From the NCBI GenBank assembly GCA_003551865.1, contig PUNU01000229.1:1-17893 (forward strand): 17,893 nucleotides of DNA. Direction: 5' to 3'. This DNA is from Syntrophomonadaceae bacterium (lineage in GTDB: Bacteria; Bacillota_D; Dethiobacteria; DTU022). This document shows, in pieces, positions 11,119-17,494 of this stretch; position 1 is the stretch's first letter; each line of letters opens with the position of its first letter. The notes under the pieces are model-generated. The model was not told the DNA's origin and did not search any database. It was given only the letters and a program-made list of their open reading frames with translations. A program made the position numbers and the translations under genes.

Positions 11119-11592
11119 TTATCCCGACTGCCGCTTTCTGCTATCCGGATCTTGAGCTGTTGCATTGATACAAAGTTTAATACTTTCTCCCCGCGAGGCT
11201 CTGGCCAATTCCCGGTCCAGTGTCAGGATCATCAGCTCGGGAAATTCCTGCTGCAGCGTTTTGGCTGTAGCAAGATGCCATAAACCTGTGCCTCCGAGCG
11301 GCCATTTGTAGGCCAGTTTCTTTAAAGTCAGAGTATCTGGGACAATGTTCAACCTGCTCCATGGTCCGGACTCAAGCAGCTCAAACAGCGAATCGCCGAG
11401 CATTTCCGACAGCAGGCGCTCCCGGCGGGCACGGCTGATGATTGTAAATACTTCCGCAATGGTCAGGGTGGTGAGAAGGTGAACACCTTTCTGCCGGGCC
11501 TTTTCTATTACCACATCGCTGTGCTCGTCTTTAAAAAGATAAGACAAAAGCGCACTTGAATCCCAGTAAACAACGGCAAGTTTATTTTTCAT
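11119..11592 (-). CDS. vapC: PIN-domain toxin, VapC-like
   Basis: A 157-aa PIN-domain protein, the endoribonuclease partner of a type II toxin-antitoxin pair. ATG 11592 is chosen because AGGAGG lies about 9 nt upstream, and YWDSSALLSYL follows at once as in VapC proteins. The open frame upstream to 11685 overlaps the antitoxin. Acidic PIN residues visible: D11 (WDSSALL), E47 (IAEVF) and D126 (LTLDREL). The third conserved acid, normally the D of DALHLATA, appears as Gly103 in GLWHLATA. Activity may therefore be reduced, or another residue may supply the ligand. It overlaps the antitoxin gene by 11 nt, typical for such pairs. Confidence 0.8.
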   Translation of the reverse strand: MKNKLAVVYWDSSALLSYLFKDEHSDVVIEKARQKGVHLLTTLTIAEVFTIISRARRERLLSEMLGDSLFELLESGPWSRLNIVPDTLTLKKLAYKWPLGGTGLWHLATAKTLQQEFPELMILTLDRELARASRGESIKLCINATAQDPDSRKRQSG

Positions 11593-11881
11593 TGTCCCTT
11601 TCCTCCTGTAAAAGCCGCCTGGCATAATTCCGGGGCAGCTCCACCGGATAAGAAACCGGTTTGCCCGGGCGTGGGCATGGTTCAATCAAACCGCAGCTTT
11701 CGTAATTTTTAATTCTTTCCTCCAGGGATAGGGCTTTTCCCTCCGCCGGAATCAACCTGGCTACGGGAGTGCCCCGATCGGTGATGATAATTTCCATTCC
11801 GCTGCGCACGTCCCGGATCAATTTGCTTAAGTTAATTCTCGCTTCCCTGATTCCAATGTAGCTTTTTTTCATTTCCACCAT
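11582..11881 (-). CDS. vapB: Phd/YefM-family antitoxin
   Basis: A 99-aa antitoxin. IGIREARINLSKLIRDVRSGMEIIITDRGTPVARLIP is split here as the Phd/YefM DNA-binding core (IGIREARINLSKLIRDV) and its beta hairpin (EIIITDRGTPVARLIP). The C-terminus (about 45-99) would wrap the toxin. Start choice is uncertain. ATG 11881 has AAGG 10 nt upstream. GTG 11890 has a ribosome site that is too close, and ATG 11872 would still leave the core whole. The protein should bind the palindrome immediately upstream and repress its own operon, with the PIN toxin as co-repressor (known of the family). Confidence 0.82.
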   Translation of the reverse strand: MVEMKKSYIGIREARINLSKLIRDVRSGMEIIITDRGTPVARLIPAEGKALSLEERIKNYESCGLIEPCPRPGKPVSYPVELPRNYARRLLQEERDNEK

Positions 11882-11894
11882 TTCAACCACGCCT

Positions 11895-13966: not shown

Positions 13967-14932
13967 TTGGGCGTTATCACTCTTTCACACGAGTTTGGCT
14001 GCGGCGGCGATGCCATTGCCCGTTTTGTGGCCGAGAAAACCGGGTTTCTGCTGGTCAACAAAGATACAATAGCCCGGGGGCTCGAGGAACACGGTGTGGA
14101 TATGCCAAACGACAGGTTGGAAGACTTAATTGAAGATGAAGAAAATGAACAGCCTCTCAGGCAGTATATCGAGGCGATGCACGAATACATCTATGACCTG
14201 GCTATCCGCAACGACCTGGTAATTTTGGGCCGGGGAGGTTCAATTCTTTTCCGCGATTACCCTCCGGCCCTGCATGTTAGATTGATTGCCCAGTTTAACC
14301 GGCGTTTACAGAGGGTAATAAAGCTCTATGATTTAAATGCGGAGACAGCGGTTAAACTGATCAAAGAGCAGGACCGAAAAAAAAGGCGGTATTACCGCCG
14401 CGTGTTCGATATTAACTGGAACAATCTGCGCGACTACAACCTTGTCATCAATACGGAACTGATGGGCCTGGAAGATGTCGCCGACATCATTATCGGCGCT
14501 TATCGCATCCATGCCGAGCCGCAGGAAGTAAAAGACGGGCCCGGCAGTGTCGAAATTGAAGAATGGGTTTTTGAAGATGCGGCGGAGGCCGAAAAGGAAG
14601 AATTTATGCATCCGAGCGAGGAAGAATTTGCCCGCATGCTCGATTTTTATCGGATCTGCTGGGAATACGAACCGCGGACCTTCCTTTTGGAGTGGGACAG
14701 CGAAGGCAATGTGCTTGAGGCTTTCTCGCCCGATTTTTACCTGCCTGATCAGGATCTCTTTATCGAGCTGACCACCCAGAAACCGAAGCAGGCCTGGAAG
14801 AAAAACCAGAAGATCAGGCGGATGAAAGATCTGTACCCGGACGTTAATGTCCGCTTGATCGACAAAAAGGGCTTTGAGAGTCTGCTTAAAAAGCACAGCA
14901 TTGACCGGAATGACAAGGGAGAAGAGACTTGA
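13967..14932 (+). CDS. cytidylate-kinase-like protein with C-terminal PD-(D/E)XK-like domain
   Basis: A 321-aa two-part protein. The start is TTG 13967, with AGGGGGG ending 6 nt upstream; TTG 13961 touches the ribosome site and is less likely. Residues 1-185 resemble the cytidylate-kinase-like family (Cytidylate_kin2): GVITLSHEFGCGGDAIARFVAEKTG in place of a standard P-loop, LVILGRGGSILFRDYP (84-99), and an Arg-rich lid (KKRRYYRRVF, 138-147). Residues about 186-213 are an acidic linker. Residues 214-310 contain SPDFYLP (254-260) and LFIELTTQK (264-272), a PD-x10-E-L-T pattern like restriction-type nuclease folds, with the usual Lys of ExK replaced by Thr269 and Lys272 nearby. Its role is unknown. 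It overlaps hpt by 4 nt (TTGA), so a link to nucleotide or nucleic-acid salvage is possible. Confidence 0.75.
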   Translation: MGVITLSHEFGCGGDAIARFVAEKTGFLLVNKDTIARGLEEHGVDMPNDRLEDLIEDEENEQPLRQYIEAMHEYIYDLAIRNDLVILGRGGSILFRDYPPALHVRLIAQFNRRLQRVIKLYDLNAETAVKLIKEQDRKKRRYYRRVFDINWNNLRDYNLVINTELMGLEDVADIIIGAYRIHAEPQEVKDGPGSVEIEEWVFEDAAEAEKEEFMHPSEEEFARMLDFYRICWEYEPRTFLLEWDSEGNVLEAFSPDFYLPDQDLFIELTTQKPKQAWKKNQKIRRMKDLYPDVNVRLIDKKGFESLLKKHSIDRNDKGEET

Positions 14933-15483
14933 GCGAGAAGAAGCCTTACGAAACTGACGAGTTAAAAATTCTTTTTAACAGAGAAGAGATCGAGGAAAAA
15001 ATTACCGGGCTGGGTAAAGCCATTTCCCGGGATTATGCCGGCGAGGAGCTGATTATGGTCGGGGTCCTGCGCGGCAGTATCTATTTCCTGGTTGATCTGA
15101 CCCGCAGGATGCATATTCCTTTTGCCATTGATTTTATCAGTGTTTCGCAATACACCGAGCAGGTCAATCAAACCGGGGTGGTGCGCATTACCAAGGACCT
15201 CGATTTAAGCATTGCCGGCCGGCATGTGCTCGTTGTTGAAGATATTGTCGACACCGGCCTGAGCCTGGGCTACCTTTTACGCAACCTGAAAACCAGGAAC
15301 CCGGCGAGCCTCAAGGTCTGCACCCTGATCAATGTGGAAGCACGCCGCATTGTCGAAGTGCCCGTCGATTACAAGGGTTTTGACATCCCTAACATATTTG
15401 TCGTCGGCTACGGCCTGGACTACAATGAACAGTACCGCAACCTGCAGTTTATAGCCGAGTTCGATCGGCCCCACCAGCAATGA
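14929..15483 (+). CDS. hpt: hypoxanthine(-guanine) phosphoribosyltransferase
   Basis: A 184-aa purine salvage enzyme that converts hypoxanthine or guanine plus PRPP to IMP or GMP in the cytoplasm. TTG 14929 overlaps the upstream stop (TTGA) and follows AAGGGAG by about 7 nt. Signatures: VGVLRGSIYFLVDL (44-57), the PRPP-binding loop LVVEDIVDTGLSL (101-113), and NIFVVGYGLDYNEQYRNLQFIA near the C-terminus (given here as NIFVVGYGLDY and NEQYRNL). Length is normal. In many Firmicutes hpt lies between tilS and ftsH; here it is coupled to the kinase-nuclease fusion gene. It converges with the structured RNA gene whose 3' end lies 17 nt past the stop. Confidence 0.95.
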   Translation: MSEKKPYETDELKILFNREEIEEKITGLGKAISRDYAGEELIMVGVLRGSIYFLVDLTRRMHIPFAIDFISVSQYTEQVNQTGVVRITKDLDLSIAGRHVLVVEDIVDTGLSLGYLLRNLKTRNPASLKVCTLINVEARRIVEVPVDYKGFDIPNIFVVGYGLDYNEQYRNLQFIAEFDRPHQQ

Positions 15484-15500
15484 AAAAAGTACATAAATAA

Positions 15501-15812
15501 ACCAGGCTCCAACAGACCTTCGGCTTACCTCCAGGACCTTTCTCCCCGACCCTCTGCGGTCGCTCTTGCTGCCCCTACAGACAGCTTTTTGCGGCCTCCG
15601 GCCGGTTAGTCAAGATCCTGTGCTGTGGTTTTCCGGCGCTTCCCGGTTCAGGCCTGGTTTTACCCTTGCCCGACCTTTCCGCTACCGTTCCTTACAGCTG
15701 CCCGTCTCTCTTGGATACTGCCGGCTTCCGATCCAGGCTTGCACCTTTTTCTTTCACCGGTTCTCCCTTCGAAACGGACCCGGTTCACCTTTTCAGTCTC
15801 TCGGAACCTGGT
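15501..15812 (-). ncRNA. candidate free-standing structured RNA, about 312 nt, class not recognised
   Basis: The 532-nt gap between hpt and atpD holds no credible gene, but the minus strand looks like an RNA gene. A near-perfect promoter points into it. The predicted 5' end ACCAGGUUCC (15812-15803) pairs fully with GGAGCCUGGU (15510-15501). After one G-G mismatch the helix continues with AGACU (15799-15795) against GGUCU (15518-15514). Inside are hairpins such as CGGCC-GGA-GGCCG (15592-15604), CGACC-N6-GGUCG (15547-15562), UGGAUCGG-AAG-CCG with a bulge then AUCCA (15712-15735) and CCGG-N6-CCGG (15633-15646). Loops are purine-rich (GGAAA, GAAAA) on this strand only. A U-rich tail (UUAUUUAU, then UUUUUU at 15488-15483) follows. 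It lacks the conserved cores of RNase P RNA, tmRNA and SRP RNA and is longer than Firmicutes 6S RNA. Confidence 0.6.
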
Positions 15813-15818
15813 AGACTT

Positions 15819-15847
15819 ATAATAGCATGGGCCGGCAGACTTGTCAA
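15819..15847 (-). promoter_or_regulatory. sigma-A promoter of the candidate structured RNA
   Basis: Minus-strand TTGACA (15842-15847), exactly 17 nt, TATTAT (15819-15824). The -35 is consensus and the -10 differs at one base. The expected start near 15812 coincides with the first base of the closing helix. Confidence 0.75.
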
Positions 15848-15904
15848 TAGTTATTTTAATATTTTATAAAAAAAAATTTTTGGATCAATTTACCTTTGCA
15901 GTAA

Positions 15905-17494
<1,590 letters not shown>

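What the first reader, a model, noticed from the sequence alone, without database searches (positions are those of the whole stretch)
15501..15812. Possible undescribed structured RNA gene between hpt and atpD
Seen: a TTGACA-N17-TATTAT promoter whose predicted start falls on the first base of a 10-bp helix formed by the two ends of a 312-nt interval, extended past one mismatch; at least four internal hairpins; purine-rich loops on the minus strand only; U-rich tail. Known: conserved cores of RNase P, tmRNA and SRP RNA are absent. Inference: an independent, multi-branched ncRNA with a closing P1 helix, transcribed toward hpt and away from the ATPase operon. It could regulate by trans-action, bind a protein, or be a very diverged known class.
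Basis: partly seen in the sequence, partly recalled or inferred. Interest (0 to 1): 0.8.

Follow-up and report, generated by a model that had tools for sequence, protein, structure and literature searches.

The report
New large structured RNA gene family
Beside a purine-salvage gene in a group of anaerobic bacteria lies a gene for an undescribed, strongly folded RNA about 312 bases long; relatives with the same closing helix and promoter occur in about half of the species examined in that bacterial class, so it is a real RNA family, of still unknown function.

Summary
The minus strand of 15501-15812 folds far better than shuffles (z -9.1; plus strand -0.9) and starts, six bases after the -10 box of a TTGACA-N17-TATTAT promoter, on the first base of its closing helix. 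No Rfam family matches.
Relatives exist: 72 complete promoter-plus-RNA copies. 50 of 96 genomes of the class Dethiobacteria carry at least one (49 complete, one cut by its contig end), as do three Bacillota genomes outside it. The closing helix has a nearly invariant core, CCGAGAGRC/GYCUGUUGG with a G.G mismatch. Outer helix and interior covary: 91% of pair cells are paired against 25-45% in slid controls, and mean covariation is about 10 sd above a tree-based null. No single pair is significant in the strict all-pairs test.
44 of 72 copies converge on hpt; one paralog follows an aminotransferase-like gene, another precedes rubredoxin in 3 of 4 loci; tandem dimers occur. 6S and RNase P RNAs are found separately.
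Best reading: a new family of stand-alone, trans-acting RNA, the helix core being a docking or end-protecting site. Existence about 0.97; mechanism inferred.

The parts
15501..15812 (-). the RNA gene: predicted ~312-nt structured non-coding RNA, 5' end at 15812, 3' end of the closing helix at 15501
   Evidence: fold z -9.09; homologues with the same ends; covariation
15842..15847 (-). -35 box TTGACA
   Evidence: present in front of all 72 complete copies (the pattern required it) and, as TTGAC, in front of 74 of 76 modules found without requiring it (one further chance module in a control locus set aside)
15819..15824 (-). -10 box TATTAT, preceded by TG
   Evidence: TANNAT-like box at the same place in the upstream sequences listed
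15848..15885 (-). A/T-rich stretch just upstream of the promoter, similar in group A relatives (AAAAATATTgAAAAAACTA); UP-element-like (label recalled)
   Evidence: upstream sequences listed
15795..15812 (-). P1 closing helix, 5' strand (contains core CCGAGAGAC at 15804-15796)
15501..15518 (-). P1 closing helix, 3' strand (contains core GUCUGUUGG at 15517-15509; G15513 faces G15800, the conserved G.G mismatch)
15782..15789 (-). P2, 5' strand (pairs with 15522-15529), leads into the junction
   Evidence: helices 2-3, coordinates
15522..15529 (-). P2, 3' strand
   Evidence: helices 2-3, coordinates
15700..15779 (-). arm I of the junction (helices 4-8)
   Evidence: 10 pairs with changes on both sides in this arm
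15622..15698 (-). arm II of the junction (helices 9-11; the outermost helix 11 is weakly supported, 73.7% paired)
15532..15620 (-). arm III of the junction (helices 12-15; the inner part of helix 12 is weak, 77.7% paired), shared with paralog B and at least group D
   Evidence: model R1 matches
15481..15500 (-). U-rich 3' flank, similar in relatives; possible release site directly behind P1
   Evidence: sequences; no terminator-like hairpin found there
14929..15483 (+). hpt, hypoxanthine phosphoribosyltransferase, convergent neighbour
   Evidence: TIGR01203, 196.6 bits over cut-off 150; HPT is among the next three genes behind the RNA in 44 of 72 copies
15929..17494 (+). atpD of an alternate (N-type, name recalled) F1Fo ATPase, divergent neighbour in the window and in most group A relatives with enough flank
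   Evidence: TIGR03305, 777.1 bits over cut-off 752; context

Best explanation
It is a stand-alone gene for a ~312-nt structured non-coding RNA of an undescribed family. SHOWN by computation: a conserved sigma-70-type promoter directly in front, a closing helix P1 and a branched interior kept by compensatory change, and paralogs at other loci of the same genomes. INFERRED: the RNA is made constitutively, its 5' and 3' ends are sealed in P1, and it acts in trans as a stable particle. The nearly sequence-invariant P1 core (CCGAGAGRC/GYCUGUUGG, with a G.G mismatch and a G.U pair), set in an otherwise covarying helix, is most simply a docking or end-protection site for one conserved partner, probably a protein, while the length-variable interior (247-416 nt overall) forms a scaffold that differs between paralogs.
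For: Fold z -9.09 on the gene strand only; 69 of 72 copies z <= -3, mean -5.99, against a mean of -2.5 and 25 of 72 on the opposite strand. Group A, 20 sequences, structure taken from the window alone: 91.0% of cells paired against 25.3-44.8% when slid; 41 of 98 pairs with both-side changes against 14-19. Tree-based null: mean score 2.47 against -0.02 +/- 0.23 (A), 2.99 and 3.37 (two structures) against about 0 +/- 0.3 (B). P1 core nearly invariant while outer P1 pairs switch between G-C, A-U and G-U. Own promoter. No long reading frame: longest start-to-stop runs 20-80 codons, varying between copies. In 44 of 72 copies HPT faces the RNA from the other strand, so there is no downstream gene it could lead. 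Paralog B at an aminotransferase-like locus, a further paralog and dimers from one promoter suggest action in trans.
Against: No transcript data. No single pair significant in the all-pairs test (0 in A, B, C and in A6). The interior of group C and most of E aligns or scores poorly, so a common interior is shown for A and B and supported for D and a few others only. The docking role is a guess from conservation; no partner was identified. One paralog stands in front of a rubredoxin gene on the same strand in 3 of 4 loci, which would also fit a leader. Carrier genomes are mostly unnamed and in many contigs.
Confidence: 0.55

Rival explanations
1. RNA-only assembly: like GOLLD, ROOL or OLE, the RNA folds into a homo-oligomer without a protein, the P1 core and purine-rich internal loops making RNA-RNA contacts.
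For: Large, branched, very stable fold with conserved purine-rich internal loops; tandem copies and dimeric transcripts; published precedent for three ornate RNAs (PMC12286853, abstract and passages seen).
Against: The same paper reports a large RNA that stays monomeric (raiA motif; passage). Length varies by about 170 nt between copies, which is hard for a fixed interface outside P1. No test here.
Confidence: 0.15
2. Base-pairing regulatory sRNA: accessible purine-rich loops pair with pyrimidine-rich sites in mRNAs.
For: Purine-rich loops on the gene strand; several paralogs with different interiors.
Against: Most of the length is structured and the most conserved stretch is inside the P1 helix, whereas seed regions are normally unpaired and the most conserved part (recalled). 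No target search was made.
Confidence: 0.12
3. Cis-acting leader (riboswitch-like), at least for some paralogs: a P1-closed domain controlling the next gene.
For: Paralog B lies in the same orientation as the next gene and ends about 40-250 nt before it. The further paralog is followed on the same strand by a small rubredoxin-like gene (MxKYVCELCDYTYDP..., label from reading) about 33 nt (L255), 50 nt (L248) and 230 nt (L254) away; none was seen behind the fourth (L256).
Against: In 44 of 72 copies the gene behind is HPT on the opposite strand, so the window's copy cannot lead a gene; the genes after B differ between genomes; no terminator-like hairpin or other expression platform was recognised in the window (not examined in relatives).
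Confidence: 0.1
4. CsrA sponge (CsrB-like): GGA motifs in loops titrate CsrA.
For: About 13 GGA per group A copy, about 6 of them unpaired in the fold; GGA counts lie 9-23% above shuffles in all four groups (13.2/12.1, 13.4/11.1, 7.8/6.6, 17.8/14.5).
Against: The excess is small. 31 of 50 carrier genomes have no CsrA match, and CsrA is no commoner in carriers (19 of 50) than in the other genomes (19 of 46) (recount).
Confidence: 0.02
5. Miniature inverted-repeat mobile element whose terminal repeats look like a helix.
For: Inverted ends, several copies per genome, tandem copies.
Against: Copies sit at recurring loci (HPT 44, aminotransferase-like 15 of 72); the promoter outside the repeat is conserved; interior helices covary; no blastn match (E<=1e-5) to the window's RNA in 50,697 phage or 72,556 plasmid records, and 13 viral-contig motif hits had neither promoter nor 3' core.
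Confidence: 0.02

Closest known systems
Large 'ornate' bacterial RNAs (OLE, ROOL, GOLLD, raiA motif, HEARO)
   Same: Stand-alone, long, multi-branched bacterial RNA of unknown or barely known function
   Different: No Rfam match on the RNA in the window or in the 23 relative loci scanned; HEARO goes with an HNH endonuclease gene (PMC12286853, passage), and none was recognised among the five window proteins scanned with Pfam; marked by a conserved P1 core rather than by the interior
6S RNA
   Same: Closing helix, own strong promoter, paralogs in one genome (6S paralogs recalled)
   Different: 6S RNA is found separately in 86 of 96 genomes of the class, 45 of the 50 carriers (recount); this RNA has a three-arm junction and no 6S match
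RNase P RNA (bacterial type A)
   Same: About 300-400 nt, closing helix, branched
   Different: Found separately over the cut-off in 29 of the 37 carrier genomes; no match at this locus
Y RNAs (Ro60/Rsr partners)
   Same: In recalled terms: a conserved terminal stem with a distorted protein site, and a variable interior
   Different: Only a recalled analogy; no Rfam match; about three times longer (recalled); presence of a Ro60 gene not tested
CsrB/RsmZ-type sponges
   Same: Purine-rich loops with GGA
   Different: GGA only slightly above shuffles; 31 of 50 carriers have no CsrA match; one closed branched fold

Membership tests
Any of the 4227 Rfam 15 families | covariance-model score above the family's gathering threshold | tested here: not met
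   0 hits in the window; only unrelated weak rows in the region; no row on the RNA in 16 relative loci at E<=1 (flanking tRNAs and weak unrelated rows) and 0 hits in 7 more at gathering threshold. 23 of the roughly 150 carrier loci fetched were scanned
6S RNA (RF00013) | match to the 6S model at this locus | tested here: not met
   No match here; 6S elsewhere in 86 of 96 class genomes, 85 over the cut-off
RNase P RNA (RF00010) | match to the RNase P model at this locus | tested here: not met
   No match here; RNase P RNA elsewhere in 30 of 37 carriers, 29 over the cut-off
tmRNA | tRNA-like domain and tag frame | tested here: not met
   ARAGORN finds none in the window; no Rfam match
OLE / ROOL / GOLLD / raiA / HEARO | match to the family model (that all are in Rfam 15 is recalled) | tested here: not met
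OLE / ROOL / GOLLD-like quaternary RNA assembly | homo-oligomer without protein | not testable with these tools
   needs cryo-EM or mass photometry
CsrB-like sponge | GGA motifs enriched in loops | tested here: inconclusive
   GGA 9-23% above shuffles in the four groups
CsrB-like sponge | CsrA in the genome | tested here: not met
   no CsrA match in 31 of 50 carriers; some genomes may be incomplete
Riboswitch / cis-regulatory leader | lies in the 5' leader of a gene on the same strand, kept among homologues | tested here: not met
   for the window's copy and the hpt-linked type: HPT faces it in 44 of 72 copies. Open for paralog B and the rubredoxin-linked paralog
Y RNA / Ro60 RNP | terminal stem bound by Ro60 (Rsr); rsr gene in the genome | not tested
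MITE | unrelated insertion sites and target-site duplication | tested here: inconclusive
   sites recur; duplications not examined

The most novel reading that the evidence does not exclude
A previously unknown class of house-keeping-type RNA particle of the Dethiobacteria and neighbours: a modular family in which a nearly invariant P1 'plug' (CCGAGAGRC/GYCUGUUGG with a G.G mismatch) is a universal docking or assembly site, the interior is exchangeable between paralogs, and copies can be strung in tandem on one transcript to build RNA or RNA-protein multimers.
Probability: 0.3. Interest if true: 0.9.

Novelty: categorically new. Interest (0 to 1): 0.75.

Why it matters
New families of large, branched bacterial RNAs are rare finds, and GOLLD, ROOL and OLE turned out to form RNA-only assemblies (PMC12286853, abstract). 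This one has 76 modules in hand, a sharp diagnostic motif and recurring gene neighbourhoods. Its carriers appear to include Dethiobacter alkaliphilus, a cultured species (PMC10376724, abstract passage), and Desulfitibacter alkalitolerans (cultured as far as I recall), so transcript, structure and partner can be tested directly. At the level of RNA families it matches nothing in Rfam 15; the broad kind, a large structured RNA of unknown function, is known.

Tried and rejected
Strict covariation: an R-scape-like all-pairs test written here (G-statistic, product correction, substitutions re-dealt along the tree) gave no pair at E<=0.05 in A (20 sequences), B (20), C (11) or the 40-sequence arm III alignment A6. 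With the test limited to proposed pairs, 1 pair (A) and 1 or 2 pairs (B, two structures) passed. I therefore rely on the aggregate test and the slid controls.

Structural alignment: mafft --qinsi was not accepted as an option. A full-length covariance model was not attempted because calibration time grows steeply with length; a 128-position model of arm III plus the 3' strand of P1, with only 20 base pairs, was built instead. It matches the five group D copies at 43.7-54.6 bits, Desulfitibacter at 40.4, two E copies (L249, L252) at 69.6 and 53.1, other C and E copies at 9.6-27.3 bits, and gave no row for the hpt-side copies in L247, L253, L254 and L255. A common interior for C and most of E is therefore weakly supported.

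Phage and plasmid origin: no blastn match; viral contigs, 13 exact motif hits, none with promoter or 3' core. CsrA sponge, 6S, RNase P: see rivals and membership. Coding: no long frame. Structure search of the neighbouring kinase-like protein found its kinase half only; the C-terminal domain was not modelled alone, so nothing is said about its fold.

Corrections to my own counts. In one search, 1 of the 72 rows (L184, the same copy as L093) was joined to a wrong downstream match because its true 3' core reads UUUGUUGG; the same wrong end went into (L184, z -1.3). My genome patterns require CCGAGAGRC, so the four copies with CCGAGAGGU (L248, L254, L255, L256) and more diverged ones were missed: 50 of 96 is a lower bound. 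The invariance of the 5' core is partly imposed by the pattern; the 3' core was in no genome pattern. In one search L107 was put in group B; it was moved to A before the alignments, but the GGA counts still have it in B. In one search, 1 of 77 modules lies in an unrelated control locus (L013) and has no promoter. One search gave two strings outside the class (G353, G369) that look like chance and were not examined further. One search printed long stretches of fetched sequence through a slicing slip.

Literature. Ten searches listed no paper that describes this RNA. Three papers on new RNA families (PMC11109978, PMC8632094, PMC2864571) were searched for hpt, hypoxanthine and a few other words only (passages; hpt and hypoxanthine absent from the main text); their supplements could not be read. 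Subscription journals and preprints are mostly not held.

Full report
WHAT WAS CLAIMED AND WHETHER IT IS THERE. The minus strand of 15490-15822 folds to -151.1 kcal/mol against -104.3 +/- 5.2 for 100 dinucleotide-preserving shuffles (z -9.09, 0 of 100 as good); the plus strand is ordinary (z -0.91, 18 of 100 as good). A near-consensus promoter, TTGACA-17-TATTAT with TG before the -10 box, lies at 15847-15819 on the minus strand (11 of 12). After six bases comes A15812, the first base of a helix with 15501: 12 bp, one G.G mismatch, 5 bp more. Rfam 15 has no match in the window at gathering threshold and no relevant weak match. ARAGORN finds no tRNA or tmRNA.

FINDING RELATIVES. No whole genome is held for the window. 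A scan of one genome per species with the neighbouring HPT protein gave one close locus, L001, a Syntrophomonadaceae MAG (HPT 68% identical). Behind its hpt, in the same orientation, lies an RNA with the same ends, TTGACA in front, and paired changes in the closing helix. BLAST with that RNA over 99 relatives found many more, often two per genome. The 16-base motif CCAGRTTCCGAGAGRC occurs in 37 of 97 genomes of the class, against 0 of 97 for the motif read backwards. A looser promoter-plus-core pattern, TTGACA-N33..41-CCGAGAGRC, occurs in 50 of 96, the backward control in 7 of 96. All 13 genomes gained over carry the 3' core at the right distance; of the 50, 49 have a complete copy and one (G041, L149) is cut by its contig end. 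In a sample of 398 genomes of the phylum, 13 match, 6 of them outside the class: 2 are real by promoter and 3' core (G189, G137), 1 is cut by its contig end but has the promoter and 5' sequence of G189 (G254), and 3 are chance. A second pattern over the same sample added outside the class only two strings that look like chance (G353, G369, not examined further). Of 50 genomes (of the 80 behind the loci) only G054 matched the motif, and G054 is itself in the class. The single-contig carrier G013 is Candidatus Contubernalis alkaliaceticus (HPT 100% identical, contig length 3,558,951 in both), which NCBI places in Dethiobacteria (its genome paper gives 3,558,949 bp, PMC10608574, passages); so the class is Dethiobacteria. 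G024 is probably Dethiobacter alkaliphilus (HPT 99% identical to a cluster of that name).

IT IS AN RNA, NOT JUST CONSERVED DNA. Group A, the window type, was aligned (20 sequences) and scored with the structure predicted from the window alone: 91.0% of cells form standard pairs, against 25.3-44.8% when the partner is slid by 1-3 columns; 41 of 98 pairs have a change on both sides against 14-19 slid and 20.6 +/- 2.8 shuffled; covariation score 0.262 against 0.047-0.082 slid and 0.185 +/- 0.006 shuffled. Against a null that re-deals substitutions along the tree, the mean pair score is 2.47 in A (null -0.02 +/- 0.23, maximum of 100 nulls 0.65) and 2.99 or 3.37 in paralog B with two alternative structures (null sd 0.28 and 0.32, maximum 0.67 and 1.0). 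Against this: no single pair reaches E<=0.05 in the all-pairs version, so the evidence is aggregate. Over 72 copies, 69 fold with z <= -3 (mean -5.99); on the opposite strand the mean is -2.5 and 25 of 72 reach -3 (one copy, L184, was cut at a wrong end). Reading frames on the RNA strand are short (longest start-to-stop 20-80 codons) and vary between copies.

ANATOMY. From 5' to 3': an A-rich stretch, promoter, +1 on the first base of P1; P1; a short P2; a junction with three arms; P2 and P1 again; then a U-rich flank. P1 has two zones. The outer zone covaries (for example CCAGGUUCC/GGAACCUGG, CCAAAUCCC/GGGAUUUGG, CCGAAUCCC/GGGAUUCGG). The inner core CCGAGAGRC/GYCUGUUGG hardly varies, with a G.G mismatch in all 72 rows (one row, L184, is joined wrongly, but its true copy, L093, also shows G.G and has UUUGUUGG in place of YCUGUUGG). 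The 5' half of the core was in my search patterns, the 3' half was not: of 78 promoter-plus-5'-core hits, 72 have a 3' core, 4 are cut by a contig end, 1 by a run of N, and 1 (L227) is a chance hit in other sequence. Length from P1 to P1 runs from 247 to 416 nt.

PARALOGS AND NEIGHBOURS. HPT is among the next three genes behind the RNA, facing it, in 44 of 72 copies, usually followed by a cytidylate-kinase-like gene; 15 of 72 (paralog B, -10 region GATCAATAAT) follow a class-III-aminotransferase-like or aldehyde-dehydrogenase-like gene; 13 of 72 are elsewhere or too close to a contig end to tell. Labels other than HPT, AtpD and the kinase-like protein come from my reading of the sequences, not from a family search. 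Searching without the promoter and with a looser 5' core gives 77 modules, 74 with TTGAC in place: of the other 3, 1 is a chance hit in a control locus (L013) and 2 are second modules of tandem dimers that follow a first module without a promoter of their own (L172 3755-4193; L263 1074-1519). Four of the 77 are a further paralog with core CCGAGAGGU about 2-3 kb past the hpt-side copy (L248, L254, L255, L256); behind three of them, at about 50, 230 and 33 nt on the same strand, lies a small rubredoxin-like gene, not seen behind the fourth. Arm III aligns between A and B; a model of it also matches the five group D copies at 43.7-54.6 bits and Desulfitibacter at 40.4, others more weakly or not at all.

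WHAT IT IS NOT. 6S RNA is found elsewhere in 86 of 96 class genomes, 45 of the 50 carriers, and RNase P RNA in 30 of 37 carriers, 29 over the cut-off. CsrA has a match in 38 of 96 genomes, 19 of 50 carriers and 19 of the other 46, so the two do not go together; GGA motifs lie only 9-23% above shuffles. There is no blastn match in 50,697 phage or 72,556 plasmid records, and the 13 viral-contig motif hits lack promoter and 3' core. It is not a leader of hpt, which runs the other way; a leader role remains open for paralog B and the rubredoxin-linked paralog.

HOW IT MOST LIKELY WORKS. Shown: promoter, ends, fold, conservation, paralogs. Inferred: a stable, constitutively made RNA whose ends are sealed in P1 and which acts in trans. 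That a nearly invariant, slightly distorted core sits inside a helix that elsewhere covaries is the usual mark of a recognition site (general knowledge), so I propose docking or end-protection by one partner, most likely a protein; the interior then serves as a scaffold that differs between paralogs. The chief rival is an RNA-only assembly like GOLLD, ROOL or OLE (PMC12286853, abstract and passages). Neither can be decided here.

VERDICT. A real, undescribed RNA family: probability about 0.97 that this is a structured RNA gene, about 0.55 for the mechanism as stated. At family level it matches nothing in Rfam 15, and the ten literature searches named under Tried and rejected listed no description; the broad kind, a large structured RNA of unknown function, is known.

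Noticed in passing
[not shown]
   Followed up: partly
L172 3755-4193 and L263 1074-1519 (-): Tandem dimers: a second, shorter RNA module with its own compensated P1 follows the first within a few bases and has no promoter of its own.
   Followed up: partly
L248, L254, L255, L256 (about 2-3 kb past the hpt-side copy): A further paralog with 5' core CCGAGAGGU and a similar interior; in 3 of 4 a small rubredoxin-like gene follows on the same strand.
   Followed up: partly
L143 / L118 (G064:C139): Two 5' ends about 340 nt apart separated by a run of N: probably an assembly gap inside one or two copies.
   Followed up: no
L053 / G054: A MAG titled Desulfovibrio sp. DeMMO6_25 lies in the same class as the other carriers and bears the RNA; its title is probably wrong.
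   Followed up: no
window 11119-11890 (-): A Phd/YefM antitoxin-like and PIN-domain protein pair; similar pairs recur near some group A loci (clusters c4 and c15).
   Followed up: no
paralog B loci (for example L171, L202, L203): The B copies sit between metabolic genes; the gene after B is proC-like in some genomes and NuoEF/formate-dehydrogenase-like in others (labels from reading).
   Followed up: no
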